The notes beneath the pieces were generated by a model. The model was not told where the DNA came from and did no database searches. It saw only the letters and a list, made by a program, of their open reading frames with translations. This document shows, one piece after another, positions 28,995-52,204 of a DNA stretch of 64,000 nt. Every line of letters begins with the position of its first letter. The stretch's first letter is position 1. The stretch comes from an uncultured Erythrobacter sp. (lineage in GTDB: Bacteria > Pseudomonadota > Alphaproteobacteria > Sphingomonadales > Sphingomonadaceae): assembly GCA_937899785.1 (NCBI GenBank), contig CALCCG010000184.1, forward strand, positions 1 through 64,000, written 5' to 3'. The position numbers were made by a program, and so were the translations under genes.

Positions 28995-29810
28995 ATGTCT
29001 GTTATCAACACAAACGTATCCGCGCTGCGGGCTCAGGCCGCAAGCACGCAAGCGAACGAAAAGCTGCAGAGCGCGTTTGAGCGTCTTTCGACGGGCAACC
29101 GCATCAACTCGGCCGCTGACGACGCCGCCGGCCTTTCGATCGCGACCGGCTTCACCTCCGACATTCGCGGCATTAACCAGGGCATCCGGAACGCCAACGA
29201 TGGCATCGCTCTGGCGCAGACCGCGGAAGGCGCCTTGGAGGAAGTGACCAACCTCCTGCAGCGTGTTCGCGAACTGGCTGTCCAATCGCAGAACGGCACG
29301 CTCGACGACACCGACCGCGGCTTCCTCGACACCGAAGTCACCGAACTCGCCGCGCAGATCGACGACATTCTGACCAACACCGAATTCAACGGCATCGCTG
29401 TCTTCGGAACCGGCGGTTCGGACGTGTCGGTCAACATCCAGCTCGACGCGACCCGTTCGGTCACGATCACGAGCACCGCGATCGACACGACCAACCTCGA
29501 CGCCGCCGGCCTTGACGTCAGTTCTTCGACCAACGCCGCGACCGCGATCACCAATGTCGACAACGGTCTTCAGGCGGTGAACACAACGCGTTCGTCGCTG
29601 GGTGCGGGGCAGAACCGTCTGCAAGCTGCGATCAACAACCTGACGACGACGTCGACCAACCTGGCTGACGCCCGCTCGCGAATTGAAGACGCAGACTTCG
29701 GCGCGGAATCCACCGCGCTTTCCAAGGCCCAGATCCTTGGGCAGGCCTCGACCGCGATCCTGGCTCAGGCCAACCAGTCGCAACAGAACGTGTTGTCGCT
29801 GCTCCGATAA
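28995..29810 (+). CDS. fliC: Flagellin, short D0/D1-only form
   Basis: A 271-residue flagellin. The N-terminal D0/D1 helices ([17 protein letters not shown], then [20 protein letters not shown] and [13 protein letters not shown]) and C-terminal D1/D0 ([21 protein letters not shown], then [14 protein letters not shown]) are complete. The variable centre is only about 60 residues, so outer domains D2/D3 are missing, as in other short alphaproteobacterial flagellins. The central part is rich in Thr and Ser, possible O-glycosylation sites. ATG 28995 is chosen; the frame extends upstream but conserved sequence starts here. It has its own sigma-28-like promoter and a strong terminator. Only one flagellin gene is in the window. 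Confidence 0.97.
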
Positions 29811-29959: not shown

Positions 29960-32398
29960 CTAGGCTGCGGCGACCGCCTGTGTCTCAAGAGCCGGCGCGG
30001 CAAGTCCGAGAGAGACGACCTCAGAGCCCCTGGCTCTCAAAGGCCGAAAGACAATTTCGATCATCTGCGCTTCCTGCACGATCTCGGTCACGAGCGGCGG
30101 TATCACGAGGCTCGCCTCGTCGCTCTCGCAGGCCAGAATCGAAGGCGCGATCTCGCGCATACCGTCAAACATGGCTTCCACCGGTTCCGGCGCACGGCCC
30201 GTCCAACCTTTCAGCGAAGCGACGGCAGAGCGCGCGATCGATCCTATCTCGATCAGTTCGAATTGCGCGCCAAGCTTAAGCGCGATGCCCTTGCCACGGC
30301 TGGGAAGCGGAAGCCTTACGACGTAGAACCCTTCATAGGTCGTGTTCGCGGCGACCCGCTGAACACTGGCGTCATGGGCGTCGAAGTGGATCGCGTCGAG
30401 CTCGATCGCGGAGCCCATCGTGTCGGCGTAGGTGAGGCCCAGCCGGCGCACGGTCTGCACCAAAAGCGAAAGCCGCGCCTCGACCGGCTCGTTGGCCAGC
30501 TCAGCGGGCAGATACATCCGCTCTACCCCTTTGAGGTAGAACAGTCCCCGCCGGCGCAGGCCATCGCGCGCGGAATCGTTGTCGAACAGCGCGACCATAT
30601 GCTCCGCGCCAAAGTTGAAGTCGTGCTCAAAGCGACCCAGGATCTCCAACTCAACCGGAAGCGGGAGGAACATCAGACGAGTCATCGCGCTAGCCGCCGC
30701 CTCGCGCCACGCGCGGCGTGTGTGCGCCGGTTCGGTCTGACGCGCGATGGGCACCGCCTGCCGAGCCGCTTCGGCGAAGGCCACACACCCCTTCTGCACA
30801 GCTTCACGCATGGCCGATTGCTTCGGGTTGACTGGGCTCACCTTATGCACCGGCAGGCCCTTTTCAGTGTAGTCGATCACCGATCCCAGATCGCACGTCG
30901 AAAGCTGCTCGATCAGCGCCGAATTGCGCGTAAGGCCCAGCACCATGGTCGAACCGAATTCGCGCGCGTCGATCAGACCTTTTTTGTCGAGACCGGTCAC
31001 GGTCATCTCGCGCAGCAGCATGTAACGTCCCGCGACGTGGCAATCAAAGGCCTCCACCAGCATCGCGTCAATCGCGTTCTGCGTGGATCCGTCATAGCCC
31101 AGATCGATCAGCATCAGCGTATCGCCGGGCTGCGGATCGCACTCGGCGCGGATATGGGCGATGAGGCGGTCCGCCAAAGCGCGGGCTCGGCGCCTCGTGA
31201 TCTTTTCGCGCTTGCCTGATCGCAGCTCAGCAAACACCGCGTCCTGAGCCTCCGCAATGGCGTCATCGCTTTTGGGATCGCCAACGATGCGGTCAACCTC
31301 GTCTTCAGTGAACAGCATTTGCCGCGCGAAGCGAGCCGGATCGACCCCGCGATACAGCGCGCTGTGCCGCCGATAGTTCGCGCGCGAGGCGAGCGAGGCG
31401 CCGATGGAAACCACGCGGCTGATCCCGATCCGCGCCGCGCTTTCGACCTCGCCGCCCGCGCAGTGAACGAGGTGCGGCAAATGCGCGTCGCGAAGCATGA
31501 AAAGCCAGTGCACCTGGCCCCCGCGCTGCGCTTCAATCTTGTCAGCCTCTTCGCGCAGCCAGCGATCAAAGGCGTAGTAGATCGGTCCCAGCGCGCAGAA
31601 GCCGACCGAACGCGCGGGATCGGCAATGCATGGTTCGCGCGCAGCGAGGAGCGCGCGATGGGGCTGAAGTCCTTCGACACCGCGCTTCTCAAGATCCAGC
31701 AATTCGCGGCAGGCCCGCTCCAGCCGCAAACGCCGCTGCGCGGTCTCGGAGAATTGGGCAAGATGCAGCGCGGGTATTCCAGCGGCGCGCGCGCCTTCGA
31801 AGTCCGCTCGGCGATTGTCGCCGATATGGAGAAAGTCGTTCGGGTGGCATTTCATCGTCTTGACCACGCGCTCAAGCAGCCCTTGGCTTTTGGAGAGTCC
31901 CGCTTCGCACGAGGCAAAGATGCGGTCGATCATTCCTGCGACCTCAGCGCCAGCCACCCGCTCGATCAGGGCGCCAAGCTGCTCAGCGGTCAGAAACGTG
32001 TCCGAGACAACGATCACGCGCATCCCCATAGCTTTAGCCTTGCGCATCAATTCCACCGTCGGCGCGAACGCAAAACACGTCTGCGCTTCAACCTCCAACT
32101 CCTCGTCCACCGCAACGGCGATCGCCTCTGAGGAGGCTCCGGGCATGGCCTGGGCGTAAATCTCGGTGAGGCTCACTTCGACGCGATCCTGCAGCGCGCG
32201 CGCGGTTTGGCGAGCGTTGGTCTGCGCCATGACCCGCTGACCATAAGAGACCGAGCCAAGCCCCGCGAACACGTCGGTGGGCCCATGGCAATCGCGCCAT
32301 AAAAGTGTGTCGAAGCAGTCGAGCGAGAGCACGCTCACCCCCGGATCTGTTCTTTCCAACGCTTCCGGCAGATCAGCGGGGAGGATCGTATCGTGCAT
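29960..32398 (-). CDS. Large HAD-family hydrolase-domain protein, probable glycan-modification function
   Basis: An 812-residue protein. Residues 20-215 are a HAD domain: nucleophile D27 in LSLDCFDTLL, S132 in VIVVSDTF, the motif III lysine K170 (GLSKSQGL) and the metal-binding GDNRRAD at 193-199. The next approximately 600 residues have no family I can name with confidence, though LMLIDLGYDGSTQNAI resembles the D.GW.GS.Q motif of HAD-fused proteins in polysaccharide gene clusters. ATG 32398 has GGAGA 7 bases upstream; the longer frame is not supported. It lies between fliC and the Kdo-type genes, which contain no KdsC, so its HAD domain could supply the missing phosphatase step. That is inference. 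Confidence 0.72.
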   Translation of the reverse strand: MHDTILPADLPEALERTDPGVSVLSLDCFDTLLWRDCHGPTDVFAGLGSVSYGQRVMAQTNARQTARALQDRVEVSLTEIYAQAMPGASSEAIAVAVDEELEVEAQTCFAFAPTVELMRKAKAMGMRVIVVSDTFLTAEQLGALIERVAGAEVAGMIDRIFASCEAGLSKSQGLLERVVKTMKCHPNDFLHIGDNRRADFEGARAAGIPALHLAQFSETAQRRLRLERACRELLDLEKRGVEGLQPHRALLAAREPCIADPARSVGFCALGPIYYAFDRWLREEADKIEAQRGGQVHWLFMLRDAHLPHLVHCAGGEVESAARIGISRVVSIGASLASRANYRRHSALYRGVDPARFARQMLFTEDEVDRIVGDPKSDDAIAEAQDAVFAELRSGKREKITRRRARALADRLIAHIRAECDPQPGDTLMLIDLGYDGSTQNAIDAMLVEAFDCHVAGRYMLLREMTVTGLDKKGLIDAREFGSTMVLGLTRNSALIEQLSTCDLGSVIDYTEKGLPVHKVSPVNPKQSAMREAVQKGCVAFAEAARQAVPIARQTEPAHTRRAWREAAASAMTRLMFLPLPVELEILGRFEHDFNFGAEHMVALFDNDSARDGLRRRGLFYLKGVERMYLPAELANEPVEARLSLLVQTVRRLGLTYADTMGSAIELDAIHFDAHDASVQRVAANTTYEGFYVVRLPLPSRGKGIALKLGAQFELIEIGSIARSAVASLKGWTGRAPEPVEAMFDGMREIAPSILACESDEASLVIPPLVTEIVQEAQMIEIVFRPLRARGSEVVSLGLAAPALETQAVAAA

Positions 32399-32732: not shown

Positions 32733-33908
32733 ATGCGCATTCTGTTTTATCTGCCCGTGATCACGCCCTGGTGGTTTGCCAAGATCGTCAAGCCGCTGAT
32801 CGCGACCCTTGCGGCGGACAATGAGATCCATGTTCTGGCGCCGCCGCCATGGCGCAACACCGGCATCGGACCCGATGAGATCAAGCTGTGCGCCGACTTG
32901 CCGGACATTTGCTGGCATATTGTCAACGATCAGGGCCACCCCTCGATGCGCACGACGCCGGTCGAGCGTGATGGAATCGTGGCCTTCGTCCAGTCGCTTG
33001 CGCCGGACTATGTGGTGTGCCGCTCGGCCGATTTTGAAACGGTGAAAGCCTTTCCGGGAATTGTCCGCCACATCACCGAAGGCGCCGCCGATCCCTTGAG
33101 GCTTGGCCCAGACAGCTTTCATTTCACTCAATGCCCGTTTGATCACGGCGTCTTGCCCGATCTTAACCCCGATCAGATCGCCAAACTCGATCGCCTGATC
33201 GCACCGTTCTGGAAGCGTATGGTCCAATCGCAGCGGCTGGCCGATGTGCAGCAGGACTATGTCAACGAATGGGCCGATCTGCCAACCGATCGACCGATTG
33301 TGTTCCTGCCGCTCGAATACGAGCACGAGGAAAACTTTTACACGATGCACCGCGTCGGCGCGACGCCGAACGCGCAGCTGCTCCAAGACCTAGCCGAGCG
33401 GCTAGGCGACCGGGTGTTCCTAGCGCTCACGAACCATCCGCTGAACGAGCAATATCTCGACAACACAGCGGTCTCCAAAGTGGTCCGCGCAAACGCGTCG
33501 CGCATGCGGCTGTTGCCGGGCAAGACCCCGATCGGCACGCGCACGTCGCACTATCTTATGGAAGAAGCGGACGGCGTTATTCTGGGCGATTCCAAGGTCT
33601 ACGCGATGGCGGGCTTTCACGGCACCGCGACGCTGAGGCTTTCGCGGTTTGAGACGGGCGCATGGATGAACGCCCATGACGAACTTGATCCGTTTCTCGA
33701 GGCGCTGGCCAGCGGGTCTTGCGGAGCCCCCGAGCCCGGCGCTGCACGCACCTGGTTCGCGTTTCACACCGCCAACAATCTCAATTGCCCCCGCAACCCC
33801 GATCTTACAGCAAACGATGTGCTGCACCGCCTCGAAAAGCCATGCGATCCGGATCGTTGGGAGGCCAACTTTGCCTATTTTGCCGCGGACTGGGCCCAGG
33901 CCGCGTAA
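32733..33908 (+). CDS. Probable GT-B glycosyltransferase, capsule Kdo-transferase-like
   Basis: A 391-residue cytoplasmic protein starting MRILFYLPVITPWW. The centre has PIVFLPLEYEHEENFYT and FLALTNHPLNEQYL, and the C-terminal half DGVILGDSKVYAMAGFHGTATLRLS. This order (PLE/Q..D-like strand, then HP, then S-K/S..G.EA-like) recalls the Capsule_synth family (KpsS/KpsC) that transfers Kdo from CMP-Kdo. The similarity is by eye only. The gene leads an operon with kdsD (TAATG overlap), a cytidylyltransferase and kdsA, so transfer of the CMP-activated octulosonate made by those enzymes is the natural role. The acceptor may be flagellin or a surface glycan. Confidence 0.55.
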   Translation: MRILFYLPVITPWWFAKIVKPLIATLAADNEIHVLAPPPWRNTGIGPDEIKLCADLPDICWHIVNDQGHPSMRTTPVERDGIVAFVQSLAPDYVVCRSADFETVKAFPGIVRHITEGAADPLRLGPDSFHFTQCPFDHGVLPDLNPDQIAKLDRLIAPFWKRMVQSQRLADVQQDYVNEWADLPTDRPIVFLPLEYEHEENFYTMHRVGATPNAQLLQDLAERLGDRVFLALTNHPLNEQYLDNTAVSKVVRANASRMRLLPGKTPIGTRTSHYLMEEADGVILGDSKVYAMAGFHGTATLRLSRFETGAWMNAHDELDPFLEALASGSCGAPEPGAARTWFAFHTANNLNCPRNPDLTANDVLHRLEKPCDPDRWEANFAYFAADWAQAA

Positions 33909-34897
33909 TGAACGCCATCACCGTCCTTTCCGCTGCGCCGCACGATCTCATCGACGCCTGGTTTGGGAGCGTGATCGCCCAAGAGCGCGACGCGCTGTCG
34001 CGCTTTCTCGACACTGATCAGAACGGTGTGTCGGCCACGATCACGCTGCTCGCCGCGCAAACACGGCCTGTTATCTTCACCGGCATCGGCAAATCGGGGC
34101 ACATTGCGGCCAAGCTCGCGGCGACCTTTTCGAGCCTTGGCACCGCCGCCGTTTTCGTCAACGCAGCCGAGGCGGCGCATGGCGATCTGGGCGCGGTGGA
34201 ACCTGGCAGCGCGGTGATCGCGCTCTCCAACAGCGGATCGACCGAGGAGATTGTTCGCACGCTGCCGCTGCTCAAGGCGCGCGACTGCACGCTCATCGCG
34301 ATCGTCGGGCGCGCAGGCTCGCCGCTCGCCAGGGCGGCCGACCACCGCATCCTCGCCGAAATCGAACAGGAGGCCGACCATATCGGCATGGCCCCCACGT
34401 CCAGCACGACGTTGCATCTCGCCATTGGCGACGCGTTGGCGGTGGCGGTAAGCCGGATGCGCGGTTTCACCCGCGAGGATTTCCTACGCCACCACCCCGC
34501 CGGGCTGCTCGGCCGCCGAATGATTCCGGTCGCAAGCCTGATGCGACAAGGCGCCGACTTGCCCAGCGTTACCACATCCACCGATCTGCTCGATCTGCTC
34601 GCGGTCATGTCAGCAAAGCGGATGGGAGCCGCCTGTGTGATCGATCGGAACGACGCTCTGCTGGGACTTGTCGTGGATGGCGATGTGCGGCGTCACTTGC
34701 AGTCCGGGCCCAAACTGGCCGGCGTCACTGCGGGCGAGCTGATGCAGACCAACCCTCAGACCATCGGCCCTGACGCGACATTGGGTGATGTTCTCGCGAT
34801 GCGTCAGGACGCCGAACTTGACTGGCTGGTCCTCCCCGTCATCGATCAGGCCGGGCGCTTGCTCGGCATGCTGCACACCAACGATCTTTACGGATAA
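33908..34897 (+). CDS. kdsD: Arabinose-5-phosphate isomerase (KdsD/KpsF type), SIS plus two CBS domains
   Basis: A 329-residue enzyme converting ribulose-5-phosphate to arabinose-5-phosphate, the first step of Kdo synthesis. The SIS domain (about 40-185) has FTGIGKSGHIAAKLAATFSSLG, GDLGAVEPGSAVIALSNSG and APTSSTTLHLAIGDALAVAV. It is followed by FLRHHPAGLLGRR and two CBS repeats (MRQGADLPSVTTSTDLLDLL and LMQTNPQTIGPDATLGDVL). ATG 33908 overlaps the previous stop by one base; the next gene starts one base after its stop. Orthologues normally serve LPS or capsule; here the gene lies between flagellar loci. Confidence 0.9.
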   Translation: MNAITVLSAAPHDLIDAWFGSVIAQERDALSRFLDTDQNGVSATITLLAAQTRPVIFTGIGKSGHIAAKLAATFSSLGTAAVFVNAAEAAHGDLGAVEPGSAVIALSNSGSTEEIVRTLPLLKARDCTLIAIVGRAGSPLARAADHRILAEIEQEADHIGMAPTSSTTLHLAIGDALAVAVSRMRGFTREDFLRHHPAGLLGRRMIPVASLMRQGADLPSVTTSTDLLDLLAVMSAKRMGAACVIDRNDALLGLVVDGDVRRHLQSGPKLAGVTAGELMQTNPQTIGPDATLGDVLAMRQDAELDWLVLPVIDQAGRLLGMLHTNDLYG

Positions 34898-34898
34898 C

Positions 34899-36209
34899 AT
34901 GAACATCGTCGCCTTCATCCCGGCCAAGGGCAACAGCAAACGTGTGCCACAGAAGAACCTCGCGATTCTTGATGGCGAACACCTCTTCAAACGCAAGCTG
35001 CGTCAGGCGCTGGACTGCCCGGCGATCACCGAAGTGTGTCTCGACACCGATTGCCAAGAGATCGCCACGCGCGCCAGCGACCTGCCGGTTACCTGGCTCA
35101 GACGCCCGGACGCGCTCGCCTCCAACGCCACCGATGGGCACGCCATGTTCGCGTGGGAGTGCGGCCAACGCCCCGATGCGGATATCTGGGTTCAGGCGCT
35201 GTGCACCGCGCCCTTTGTCACCGCGGCCACCCTCACCCGCGCCATCGACGCGTTGCTCGCCACTCCAGAGGCGGACAGCCTTGTGGGGGTGAGCCGGGCA
35301 AAGCAATATTGCTGGGACACGGACACGCCCGCCTATGGCGCTGGCCCCATTCCGAACAGCGTCGATCTGCCCGAAACCGTGATCGAGGCGATGAGCCTTT
35401 ACATTGTGCGCAGACCTGCGACGGGTGAGCTGCCCATCCGCCGCTTTGGCGCACGGCCCCTGCTGTTTGACCTTGATCCAATCGAGCAAATCGACGTTAA
35501 CACCAAGGCTGATCTGGCGCTCGCCGAAACGCTTGCGACGGGGCACAGAGCGCGAGAGGCGACCCGCTTTCGCGCGATCGCGCCGCACCTTTCGTCCACG
35601 GTCCTGGCCGACATCGGCAAAGAGCTTGGGATCAACGCGGTGCTGCCGCCTCACATTCGCCCAACCACAGGCGGGCGGCTGCTGGGCCGCGCCAAGACAC
35701 TCGAGATTGCGGCGATCGCAGCGGGCGATAGTGAGGATGCTTGGAAAGGGATTTACGGCGCGCTCCAGTCCTATGATTTTGTCCGGACAGGCGATGTCAT
35801 TATGGTCGCCAACGAAGCGCCGACCCGCGCCTACTTTGGCGATCTGAACGCTAATCTGGCAATCCGGTCCGGCGCGGTCGGCGCGGTGATCGACGGGGTG
35901 ACGCGCGACACGGCGGATGTGCGCGCGCTCGGCTTTCCCGTCTACGCGCACGCCAGCCACGCCAACGATATCAAGTTCGAAGGCACTCTGAAGACCATGA
36001 ACCAGCCGATCGCCATGGGCGGCGTTCCGGTGTGCAACGAGGATGTTGTGTTCGCTGATGAAGATGGCGTGGTCGTGATCCCGCGTGCGCGCTGGGCTGA
36101 GGTCGAGCAGGCCGCTTGGGATGTGATCGAGAACGAGGCGCGCATCCGCGTGAGCGCGGCGCGCGGCGTCGATGTGAACGACATCCTCGCCCAGTTTGGT
36201 TCCTTTTAA
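34899..36209 (+). CDS. Fusion: NeuA-type CMP-sugar cytidylyltransferase plus RraA-like (HMG aldolase) domain
   Basis: A 436-residue two-domain protein. Residues 1-220 are a cytidylyltransferase: FIPAKGNSKRVPQKNL is closer to the acylneuraminate (NeuA) signature than to the KdsB IPARxxSxRLPGK form. LCTAPFVTAATLTRAI and DVNTKADLALAE also fit. Residues 228-430 match the RraA/HMG-aldolase fold: GDVIMVANEAPTRAYFGDL, then AVGAVIDGVTRDTADVRALG, with the R-D pair that binds substrate and metal, and DEDGVVVIPRARW. The domains are in one continuous frame. It starts one base after kdsD; kdsA follows after 11 bases. Expected reaction: CTP activation of the KdsA-derived 3-deoxy-ulosonate. The second domain acts on 2-keto acids in known families, so a cleavage or editing role is possible, which is inference. 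Confidence 0.82.
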   Translation: MNIVAFIPAKGNSKRVPQKNLAILDGEHLFKRKLRQALDCPAITEVCLDTDCQEIATRASDLPVTWLRRPDALASNATDGHAMFAWECGQRPDADIWVQALCTAPFVTAATLTRAIDALLATPEADSLVGVSRAKQYCWDTDTPAYGAGPIPNSVDLPETVIEAMSLYIVRRPATGELPIRRFGARPLLFDLDPIEQIDVNTKADLALAETLATGHRAREATRFRAIAPHLSSTVLADIGKELGINAVLPPHIRPTTGGRLLGRAKTLEIAAIAAGDSEDAWKGIYGALQSYDFVRTGDVIMVANEAPTRAYFGDLNANLAIRSGAVGAVIDGVTRDTADVRALGFPVYAHASHANDIKFEGTLKTMNQPIAMGGVPVCNEDVVFADEDGVVVIPRARWAEVEQAAWDVIENEARIRVSAARGVDVNDILAQFGSF

Positions 36210-36220
36210 GGAGAAGTGCG

Positions 36221-37069
36221 ATGAAGCGGATTTCGATAGGATCGCTCAAGCTTGCCAACGACCGGCCCTTTGCGCTGATAGCGGGACCGTGCGCGATGGA
36301 AAGCCGTGCGCACGCCTTGGAGATGGCGAGCGCGCTGCGCGAAATGTGCGCGAATCTGGGCGTCGGGCTGATCTACAAGTCGTCCTTCGATAAGGGCAAC
36401 CGGACCTCAATTGACTCGCCGCGCGGGGTGGGCCTGGCCAAGGCGTTGGATGTGTTTGCCGAAATTCGCGAGACACTGGACTGCCCGGTGATCACAGACG
36501 TGCACGAGGCCTCGCAATGCGCGCCGGTCGCCAAGGCGGTCGATGCGCTCCAAATCCCGGCCTTCTTGTGCCGACAGACCGATCTGCTGCTCGCCGCAGG
36601 TCGGACCGGGCGCGCGATCAACGTCAAAAAGGGCCAGTTCCTTGCACCTTGGGATATGCGCAACGTCGCTGCCAAGATTGCCAGCACTGGCAACGAACGC
36701 GTGATGCTGTGCGAACGCGGCACCAGCTTTGGCTATAACACGCTGGTCAACGACATGCGCAGCGTACCGATTATGGCGGAAACCGGCTATCCGATCGTGT
36801 TCGACGCAACCCATTCGGTGCAACAGCCTGGCGGGCAAGGAACGCGTTCCGGGGGGCGGCGCGAATATGTGCCAACGCTGGCGCGCGCGGCGGTGGCGGT
36901 GGGCGTGGCAGCGGTGTTTATCGAAACCCATGAGGAACCCGAGCGCGCGCCAAGCGACGGGCCTAACATGGTGCCGCTCAAGGAGATGCCGGCGCTGCTG
37001 ACGACGCTCAAAGAGTTTGACGCGGTGGCGAAGCGGCCGCGTTATCCGGCCAGCGTAGAAGCGGCCTGA
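36221..37069 (+). CDS. kdsA: 3-deoxy-8-phosphooctulonate synthase (Kdo-8-P synthase)
   Basis: A 282-residue enzyme of normal family length condensing arabinose-5-phosphate with phosphoenolpyruvate to Kdo-8-phosphate. Characteristic segments are FALIAGPCAMESRAHALEMA, LIYKSSFDKGNRTSIDSPRG, VITDVHEASQCAPVA, INVKKGQFLAPWDM, FGYNTLVNDMRS and VFDATHSVQQPGGQGTRSGG. AAGGAG stands 8 bases before the ATG. It is last in the glycosyltransferase-kdsD-cytidylyltransferase operon and overlaps the 3' end of the convergent IMPase gene by 28 bases. Confidence 0.95.
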   Translation: MKRISIGSLKLANDRPFALIAGPCAMESRAHALEMASALREMCANLGVGLIYKSSFDKGNRTSIDSPRGVGLAKALDVFAEIRETLDCPVITDVHEASQCAPVAKAVDALQIPAFLCRQTDLLLAAGRTGRAINVKKGQFLAPWDMRNVAAKIASTGNERVMLCERGTSFGYNTLVNDMRSVPIMAETGYPIVFDATHSVQQPGGQGTRSGGRREYVPTLARAAVAVGVAAVFIETHEEPERAPSDGPNMVPLKEMPALLTTLKEFDAVAKRPRYPASVEAA

Positions 37070-37854
37070 TCCCAGATTTCGTCGCTGTGCGCGAGAAGGA
37101 TCGCGCCGCTAGGGTCTGTTGGACAATACCGCGCACCGTCGAGCCGCGCCGCCTTTCCACCCGCCTCTTCGAGGATCAAAACCCCGGGAGCGTGATCCCA
37201 GACCAGCGTGCGCCAATACAGGGCGAAGTCACAGACGCCTTGCGCCACTATCGGGTATTCCGCGCCCGCGCAGCGCCGGGTCGGCTGGACCTGCGCCACC
37301 CGATCAGCCAGGCGGGCCACCTGCGATTCCATCGCCGCTGGCCGCTGAAAGTGGCTGATGATGCCGGTGCAGGCTGACACATCGCACGCGCCCGCGCCGG
37401 TTGTGATCCGCTCGCCATCGATCCAAGCGCCCGCTCCGCGTTCCGCCGCGACAAGCGCACCGTTGAGCGGATTCAACACGCACGACGCCACGATCTCACC
37501 GCGCCGGATGAGCGCCGCCATAAGCGCAAACGGGCCGCGCCCCTCGGCGAAGTTGCGGGTTCCATCTATCGGATCCACGATCCAGACCTCGCCCTGGTCA
37601 AGATCGCGAAGCAGAGAAGGATCGCGTGCGCAGGCCTCTTCGCCGACAAAGCGCGCCTCGGGTCGCAGCGACTTGAGCCGCGTCGCAATGATCGCTTCGG
37701 CTTCGTGGTCAGCGATGGTGACCAGTTCACCGGGGGACTTCTCTTCCACATCGCCCTTTGCCAGGCGCTGGTATCGCGGCATCACCGCATCGGCCGCCGC
37801 TTCGGCAAGACTATCGGCCATCGCGAACGCGAGCGAGGATATCCGCCGGGTCAT
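37042..37854 (-). CDS. Inositol-monophosphatase-family sugar phosphatase
   Basis: A 270-residue Mg2+-dependent phosphatase. Metal-site motifs are GEEA (71-74), DPIDGT (94-99) and WDHAPG (218-223). It is the size of histidinol-phosphatase/inositol-phosphatase members. It follows motB by 13 bases on the same strand and may be the last gene of the flg-mot operon, while its 3' end overlaps kdsA. Given the missing kdsC, it is one of two candidates for dephosphorylating Kdo-8-phosphate; a housekeeping histidinol or inositol phosphatase is equally possible. Confidence 0.82.
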   Translation of the reverse strand: MTRRISSLAFAMADSLAEAAADAVMPRYQRLAKGDVEEKSPGELVTIADHEAEAIIATRLKSLRPEARFVGEEACARDPSLLRDLDQGEVWIVDPIDGTRNFAEGRGPFALMAALIRRGEIVASCVLNPLNGALVAAERGAGAWIDGERITTGAGACDVSACTGIISHFQRPAAMESQVARLADRVAQVQPTRRCAGAEYPIVAQGVCDFALYWRTLVWDHAPGVLILEEAGGKAARLDGARYCPTDPSGAILLAHSDEIWDQAASTLAG

Positions 37855-52188: not shown

Positions 52189-52204
52189 TGGCACAGCCGT
52201 TGCA
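52189..52204 (+). promoter_or_regulatory. Sigma-54 promoter of the transglycosylase-flhA-fliA operon
   Basis: TGGCACA-GCCG-TTGCA differs from the consensus TGGCACG-N4-TTGCW only at the seventh base. The predicted start is near 52215, about 40 bases before the GTG at 52254. The TTG inside the -12 element (52200) could be mistaken for a start codon. Confidence 0.85.

What the first reader, a model, noticed from the sequence alone, without database searches (positions are those of the whole stretch)
32733..37069. Kdo-type sugar pathway embedded between flagellin and motor genes: candidate flagellar octulosonate glycosylation system
Between fliC and motB lie a capsule-type glycosyltransferase, KdsD, a CMP-sugar synthetase fusion and KdsA in one operon, with a large HAD protein and an IMPase-type phosphatase on either side. 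Together they can take ribulose-5-phosphate to a CMP-activated 3-deoxy-octulosonate and transfer it. The sequence shows the enzymes and the context. Known flagellin glycans mostly use nine-carbon pseudaminic or legionaminic acids. If this is a sphingomonad, LPS is replaced by glycosphingolipids, so a Kdo supply for LPS would not be expected. A Kdo-like decoration of flagellin or of a linked surface glycan is my inference.
Basis: partly seen in the sequence, partly recalled or inferred. Interest (0 to 1): 0.82.

Follow-up and report, generated by a model that had tools for sequence, protein, structure and literature searches.

The report
Kdo–ribose glycan genes beside flagellin
A relative of Erythrobacter with no sign of LPS genes keeps its single Kdo-synthase gene, with a predicted Kdo transferase, next to its flagellin gene and beside a predicted ribose-attaching enzyme, which suggests that its flagella or another surface glycan carry an unusual Kdo/ribose decoration.

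Summary
The observed genes are real. Window 32733-37069 is a tight four-gene operon: transferase, KdsD, NeuA-type CMP-sugar synthetase fused to an RraA-like domain, KdsA. It lies between fliC/HAD and motB. The own genome (an Erythrobacter relative, 96% complete) has one KdsA and no LpxC or WaaA match, so LPS is an unlikely use for this Kdo. The transferase matches no Pfam or NCBIfam family, but its confident model (pLDDT 94) is closest to the retaining beta-Kdo transferases WbbB and KpsC; it lacks their QXXXD motif. The 'large HAD' is by sequence a two-module PRPP-dependent ribofuranosyltransferase (relatives 7SHG, Hib Bcs3) with the catalytic acids invariant in 21 of 21 homologues; it adjoins fliC in 19 of 24 Erythrobacteraceae loci examined. 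Ribose and Kdo transfer are the two activities of the E. coli K13 capsule enzyme KrkA. The cassette is a portable, mostly Sphingomonadales module: 31 carriers found, flagellar genes adjacent in 4 (at least two origins). All 31 carry flagellin (family background 258 of 397), but phylogeny may explain part of this (p 0.075 within the genus). A Kdo transfer module is well supported; flagellin as acceptor is plausible and untested; another surface glycan is the main rival.

The parts
32733..33908 (+). predicted retaining Kdo-type glycosyltransferase (P0001), sequence family without a Pfam or NCBIfam model
33908..34897 (+). KdsD/KpsF-type arabinose-5-phosphate isomerase (SIS + 2 CBS)
   Evidence: TIGR00393 238.5 bits, cut-off 203.7; PF01380, PF00571
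34899..36209 (+). NeuA/PseF-type cytidylyltransferase fused to an RraA-like aldolase/decarboxylase domain; best candidate CMP-Kdo synthetase of this genome
   Evidence: PF02348 and PF03737; PDB hits PpNeuA and 3noj; fused in 29 of 30 cassette rows, L128 with a broken frame
36221..37069 (+). KdsA, 3-deoxy-8-phosphooctulonate synthase, single copy in the genome
   Evidence: NF003543 and TIGR01362 above cut-off; one match in G000
37042..37854 (-). IMPase-family phosphatase, convergent with KdsA; candidate Kdo-8-phosphate phosphatase (inferred)
   Evidence: PF00459; in 9 of 26 scanned carrier loci and in window, G090 and G448
29960..32398 (-). HAD phosphatase + phosphoribosyltransferase modules: predicted PRPP-dependent ribofuranosyltransferase
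28995..29810 (+). fliC, flagellin (271 aa), candidate acceptor
   Evidence: PF00669 and PF00700
37868..38803 (-). motB, right-hand flagellar boundary
   Evidence: PF13677 above cut-off; NF006548 MotB 217 bits, under its cut-off of 277

Best explanation
The operon is a self-contained Kdo module of LPS-free Sphingomonadales. KdsD turns ribulose-5-P into arabinose-5-P, KdsA condenses it with PEP to Kdo-8-P, a phosphatase (IMPase candidate) removes the phosphate, the NeuA-type half of the fusion makes CMP-Kdo, and the transferase, a WbbB/KpsC-like enzyme, adds Kdo to an acceptor. In the flagellar-locus version the acceptor is most likely flagellin, or a short glycan on it, in combination with ribofuranose added from PRPP by the neighbouring two-module HAD/phosphoribosyltransferase. 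Shown here: gene content, order, family membership, absence of LPS markers, fold and motif conservation. Inferred: every reaction, the role of the RraA domain (unknown), the acceptor, and the order of ribose and Kdo.
Against: In 27 of 31 carriers no flagellar gene lies beside the cassette in the stretch seen. Flagellin co-occurrence is confounded: within the genus p = 0.075 (6 of 6 against 60 of 91), and in carrier genera g81 and g109 the rows listed (8 and 6) all have flagellin, while rows without a match are listed only in part, so genus backgrounds are not known. The non-carrier genomes of the scan given to one search are also mostly flagellated (9 of 10). The assembly also has PseB, C, F, I and a PseG-like gene. 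The transferase has no QXXXD nucleophile motif in the expected place and no PDB sequence hit. Foldseek alone ranks a heptosyltransferase first and KpsC fourth. No promoter motif links operon and fliC. Flagellin middle regions do not differ visibly in Ser/Thr number between 6 carriers and 16 non-carriers.
Confidence: 0.47

Rival explanations
1. The cassette decorates a cell-surface polysaccharide or glycosphingolipid with Kdo; the flagellar position in four genomes is an incidental insertion beside a conserved ribofuranosyltransferase gene.
For: Cassette sits at many different chromosomal sites; characterised retaining Kdo transferases act on glycans (WbbB, KpsC, KrkA); in one Erythrobacter MAG the cassette is beside a HAD813 homologue with no flagellar gene recognised in the 21 kb seen (L104).
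Against: At least two flagellar placements; flagellin in 31 of 31 carriers. Caveat: capsule or polysaccharide export genes beside the cassettes were not searched for systematically.
Confidence: 0.34
2. The product is not plain Kdo but another CMP-activated ulosonate, for instance one remodelled by the RraA-like domain, or the transferase uses CMP-pseudaminate from the C183 locus.
For: Cytidylyltransferase is NeuA/PseF type, far below KdsB cut-offs (41 bits against 193); the RraA fusion is conserved in the cassette rows; a related family, GT118, transfers Pse; sister transferases pair with a solo CMP synthetase, also in genomes (G005, G030, G082) where neither KdsA nor NeuB was found; four Novosphingobium loci keep KdsD and the fusion without adjacent KdsA.
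Against: KdsA meets the Kdo8P synthase equivalog and is adjacent in 25 of 31 carriers; three of six genus carriers have no NeuB-family match.
Confidence: 0.14
3. A leftover or acquired LPS Kdo pathway without present function or feeding cryptic LPS.
For: KdsA and KdsD are normally LPS genes (established knowledge).
Against: No LpxC or WaaA match; open frames, invariant residues and constant order across the carriers compared, apart from the broken fusion frame of L128; fused NeuA-type synthetase instead of KdsB.
Confidence: 0.03

Closest known systems
KrkA, E. coli K13 capsule polymerase (GT140 Kdo transferase + phosphoribosyltransferase + phosphoribosyl phosphatase; PMC12887879)
   Same: Pairs a retaining Kdo-type transferase with a PRPP-dependent ribosyltransferase and HAD phosphatase
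WbbB (GT99) and KpsC (GT107) retaining beta-Kdo transferases
   Different: About 12-13% identity, no detectable sequence similarity, no QXXXD motif at the expected place
Bcs3 of the Hib capsule (CrpP + CriT; PMC10299916) and T. composti ribofuranosyltransferase 7SHG
   Same: HAD phosphatase followed by phosphoribosyltransferase; catalytic acids aligned
   Different: Beside flagellin; further C-terminal region without assigned fold; no capsule locus recognised
Maf-dependent flagellin glycosylation, incl. C. botulinum Maf that adds Kdo in engineered E. coli (PMC11339370)
   Same: Ulosonate on flagellin; shows that flagellin Ser/Thr can accept Kdo
   Different: No Maf hit in the seven proteins here; Kdo there is a promiscuous donor, not the native one
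Pseudaminic/legionaminic flagellin glycosylation islands
   Same: CMP-ulosonate pathway genes beside fliC
   Different: Eight-carbon route through KdsD/KdsA instead of a NeuB-type synthase

Membership tests
Kdo-8-phosphate synthase (KdsA) | passes curated equivalog cut-offs | tested here: met
   426.4 bits against 242 (NF003543) and 400.8 against 314 (TIGR01362); 305.6 against 457 for NF009109
KdsD/KpsF arabinose-5-phosphate isomerase | passes KpsF/GutQ subfamily cut-off, SIS + CBS domains | tested here: met
   238.5 against 203.7; below the E. coli KdsD and GutQ equivalog cut-offs (232 against 505, 213 against 481)
canonical CMP-Kdo synthetase (KdsB) | passes KdsB family cut-off | tested here: not met
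   best KdsB model 41 bits against 193; best PDB cytidylyltransferase relative is PpNeuA
retaining Kdo transferases (GT99/GT107/GT140) | modified GT-B fold shared with WbbB/KpsC | tested here: met
retaining Kdo transferases (GT99/GT107/GT140) | (K/R)XHP CMP-binding motif | tested here: inconclusive
   HP invariant in 42 of 42 rows, but T or A where K/R is expected in the 15 rows shown
retaining Kdo transferases (GT99/GT107/GT140) | QXXXD nucleophile motif at the start of the C-terminal Rossmann domain | tested here: not met
   PLEYEHEENF at 193-202 with Y196 and E200 invariant; three QXXXD strings elsewhere in the protein (133, 167, 215); position judged from secondary structure, no residue-level superposition was available
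PRPP-dependent polysaccharide ribofuranosyltransferase | sequence homology over HAD and phosphoribosyltransferase modules | tested here: met
   7shg E 3.4e-17 with two stretches, Bcs3 E 6.2e-12 over residues 27-462; 4.6e-17 and 1e-11 with the 21-row profile
PRPP-dependent polysaccharide ribofuranosyltransferase | two acids that hold PRPP ribose (Bcs3 D680, E818) and HAD nucleophile (D386) | tested here: met
   D305, D433, D28 by the alignment and my count, invariant in 21 of 21
PRPP-dependent polysaccharide ribofuranosyltransferase | ribose transfer from PRPP | not testable with these tools
   enzyme assay needed
LPS Kdo pathway | LpxC and WaaA in the genome | tested here: not met
   0 of 23 genomes each, own included; controls rang in E. 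coli and Caulobacter among others; own assembly 95.85% complete
flagellin glycosylation island | sugar-nucleotide and transferase genes inside the flagellar cluster | tested here: met
   window and G090; L125 and L142
flagellin glycosylation island | flagellin carries the sugar | not testable with these tools
   mass spectrometry needed
Maf flagellin glycosyltransferases | Maf domain | tested here: not met
   no Maf model among Pfam hits of the seven window proteins; the rest of the genome was not searched for Maf

The most novel reading that the evidence does not exclude
Flagellin of LPS-free Sphingomonadales is modified with a ribofuranose/Kdo glycan: a PRPP-dependent ribofuranosyltransferase, common at fliC in Erythrobacteraceae, acts on flagellin or a sugar on it, and a portable Kdo module with a new Kdo-transferase family caps or extends it. 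Within the papers I could search this would be the first natural Kdo on a flagellum and the first PRPP-derived ribosylation of flagellin, with Kdo kept after the loss of LPS for the flagellum.
Probability: 0.3. Interest if true: 0.85.

Novelty: new variant of a known kind. Interest (0 to 1): 0.63.

Why it matters
Kdo is usually treated as the core sugar of LPS. A lineage without LPS markers that keeps one KdsA, sited beside flagellin and coupled to a Kdo-transferase-like enzyme without the known nucleophile motif, gives a clean genetic background to ask what else Kdo is for. It also offers a candidate new retaining-transferase family, a NeuA-type::RraA fusion as CMP-Kdo synthetase, and a candidate flagellar ribofuranosyltransferase.

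Tried and rejected
LPS use of the Kdo: rejected on LpxC and WaaA absence. Large HAD as Kdo8P phosphatase only: rejected, two-module ribofuranosyltransferase homology, although its HAD half could in principle act on more than one substrate. Strict flagellar confinement of the operon: rejected. Promoters: RpoN- and FliA-type consensus scans found nothing above chance in the window and nothing in the 250 bases upstream of eight window genes and eight relatives' transferases; one weak RpoN-like site (9 of 11) lies upstream of one relative's fliC, L053. Ser/Thr enrichment of carrier flagellins: no visible difference. Profile search of the transferase against the PDB by sequence: nothing up to E 10. 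The model of the HAD protein is weak (pLDDT 63) and its C-terminal part has no assigned fold, so its assignment rests on sequence. The search of viral predicted structures gave mainly generic glycosyltransferases and one 'capsule polysaccharide biosynthesis' protein. Paper searches: RraA with kdsA and cytidylyltransferase and Erythrobacter with flagellin and glycosylation found no paper; flagellin with ribofuranosyl and glycosylation listed three papers unrelated by title; Kdo and flagellin gave the engineered Maf work; searches gave nothing on Kdo or ribose on flagella in the listings. Only open PMC papers are covered.

HAD813 at the flagellar locus outside Erythrobacteraceae: carriers 7 of 22 examined, non-carrier controls 1 of 16 (one-sided p 0.06); suggestive only. 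The 16 controls were picked by hand from the high-scoring flagellin rows, not at random; G174 was not examined; for most carriers only one flagellin locus and the cassette locus were read, not the whole genome.
Full report
What is there. The four genes at 32733-37069 form one operon with a one-base overlap and gaps of 1 and 11 bases: an unassigned glycosyltransferase (P0001), KdsD, a cytidylyltransferase::RraA-like fusion (P0003) and KdsA (P0004). KdsA passes two equivalog cut-offs and KdsD the KpsF/GutQ subfamily cut-off. The cytidylyltransferase half resembles NeuA/PseF and not KdsB. An IMPase-family phosphatase converges on KdsA (28-base overlap). On the left, divergent from the operon, lies an 812-aa HAD protein and then fliC; on the right motB, motA, flgL and flgK.

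Whose genome. The window lies in an assembly of 3.55 Mb, 95.85% complete with 6.93% contamination. Its genus-mates in this tool include Erythrobacter sp. YT30 and Qipengyuania sp. S6317L1 (contig lengths coincide), so it is an Erythrobacter relative. KdsA has one match. LpxC and WaaA give 0 matches in 23 genomes (own plus 22 same-genus, hand-picked: the 14 other P0001-positive genomes and 8 others), while controls ring in E. coli and Caulobacter among others. The abstract start of PMC11165598 in a search listing states that sphingomonads bear sphingolipids instead of LPS. A pseudaminic acid locus (PseB, C, F, I above cut-off; PseG 142 bits against 153.6; no PseH was identified) lies on another contig, so Kdo is not the only ulosonate available.

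Distribution. The fused protein P0003 defines carriers. Relatives sample: 6 of 150. Family sample: 5 of 397. A genome-contig scan with the transferase profile gave 46 loci, 26 with the fusion; two of the 26 bear other labels (a Hyphomicrobiales MAG, L128, and an Alphaproteobacteria MAG, L112), the rest sphingomonad names. KdsA is adjacent in 25 of 31; not found in four Novosphingobium loci and in L128 (where the fusion frame is broken), and L139 ends at the contig end. Flagellar genes lie beside the cassette in 4 of 31: window, G090, L125 (Sphingosinicella terrae) and L142; in the other 27 none was seen, four of these on contigs under 10 kb. On a quick ML tree of the joined proteins (30 rows) the flagellar placement needs two changes, also when only starred branches count.

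Co-occurrence with flagella. Flagellin_N matches in 26 of 26 scanned carriers (best E 1.1e-24 or better, while the window's FlgL scores 4.4e-13), 6 of 6 genus carriers and 5 of 5 family-sample carriers: 31 of 31 distinct. Background: 258 of 397 in the family; 60 of 91 in the genus, four of these only FlgL-grade. Naive Fisher p 2.4e-6; about 10 deep lineages, counted by eye, would give 0.0125; the genus alone 0.075. In carrier genera g81 and g109 all rows listed (8 and 6) have flagellin, but 119 genomes without a match are not listed, so genus backgrounds outside g1 are unknown and phylogeny may explain part of the excess. Genomes of the genus with a sister transferase and no KdsA: 6 of 9. Non-carriers given: 9 of 10 (one of them, L111, has the transferase alone; L119 was not held; L130-L135, L140 and L145 were not given).

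Ribofuranosyltransferase at fliC. Of 16 non-carrier Erythrobacteraceae fliC loci (L055-L070) 12 have it, 10 of them with a Methyltransf_24-type gene between it and fliC; of 8 Erythrobacteraceae carriers 7 have it at fliC and one beside the cassette (L104) instead. Elsewhere it lies at a flagellar locus in 7 of 22 carriers and 1 of 16 controls (p 0.06). In L125 and L142 it sits directly between fliA and the Kdo cassette on one strand.

Mechanism. Ribulose-5-P to A5P to Kdo-8-P to Kdo to CMP-Kdo to acceptor is established chemistry for the families named; the phosphatase step is assigned by neighbourhood only. The RraA half keeps an R-D pair (R336-D337 in the fusion, invariant) that I recall as pyruvate- and metal-binding in HMG aldolase; its role is unknown. 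Kdo can be put on flagellin Ser/Thr by a Maf enzyme in engineered E. coli (PMC11339370, passages read), so the acceptor chemistry is possible. My estimate: Kdo is made and transferred, about 0.85; acceptor flagellin or flagellin glycan, about 0.5.

Verdict. It is a new variant of flagellar or surface glycosylation, not an ordinary LPS locus.

Noticed in passing
L113 9965-13258, L117, L136, L034-L039: Sister branch of the transferase (32-45% identity) paired with a solo CMP synthetase, often with a HAD phosphatase and in three loci a further gene that in L113 is a KDPG/KHG aldolase; in three such genomes (G005, G030, G082) neither KdsA nor NeuB was found, so which keto-sugar is activated is unclear.
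   Followed up: partly
L051-L070 fliC loci: A Methyltransf_24 protein (about 271 aa) sits between fliC and the ribofuranosyltransferase gene in 13 of 16 loci that have the latter; it is absent in the window and G090, where the Kdo cassette is in place, but also in G026, G057 and G079.
   Followed up: partly
G000:C183, L151 11666-19411: Pseudaminic acid locus (PseB, C, F, PseG-like, I) in the same assembly.
   Followed up: partly
L043 9138-10267: Second transferase copy of G090 is split into two frames with partial matches; described only.
   Followed up: no
L101, L102, L104, L112, L137: TylF-like O-methyltransferase gene divergent from the transferase in 5 of 26 scanned cassettes.
   Followed up: no
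window 52189-52204: Perfect sigma-54-like TGGCAC-N5-TTGCA upstream of a block with a lytic transglycosylase-like gene, FlhA and a FliA-type sigma factor; matches in the window as a whole are not above chance.
   Followed up: no
L141, L143, L144, L146: Novosphingobium loci keep transferase, KdsD and the fusion but no adjacent KdsA; in three (L141, L143, L144) a short-chain dehydrogenase-type gene follows.
   Followed up: partly
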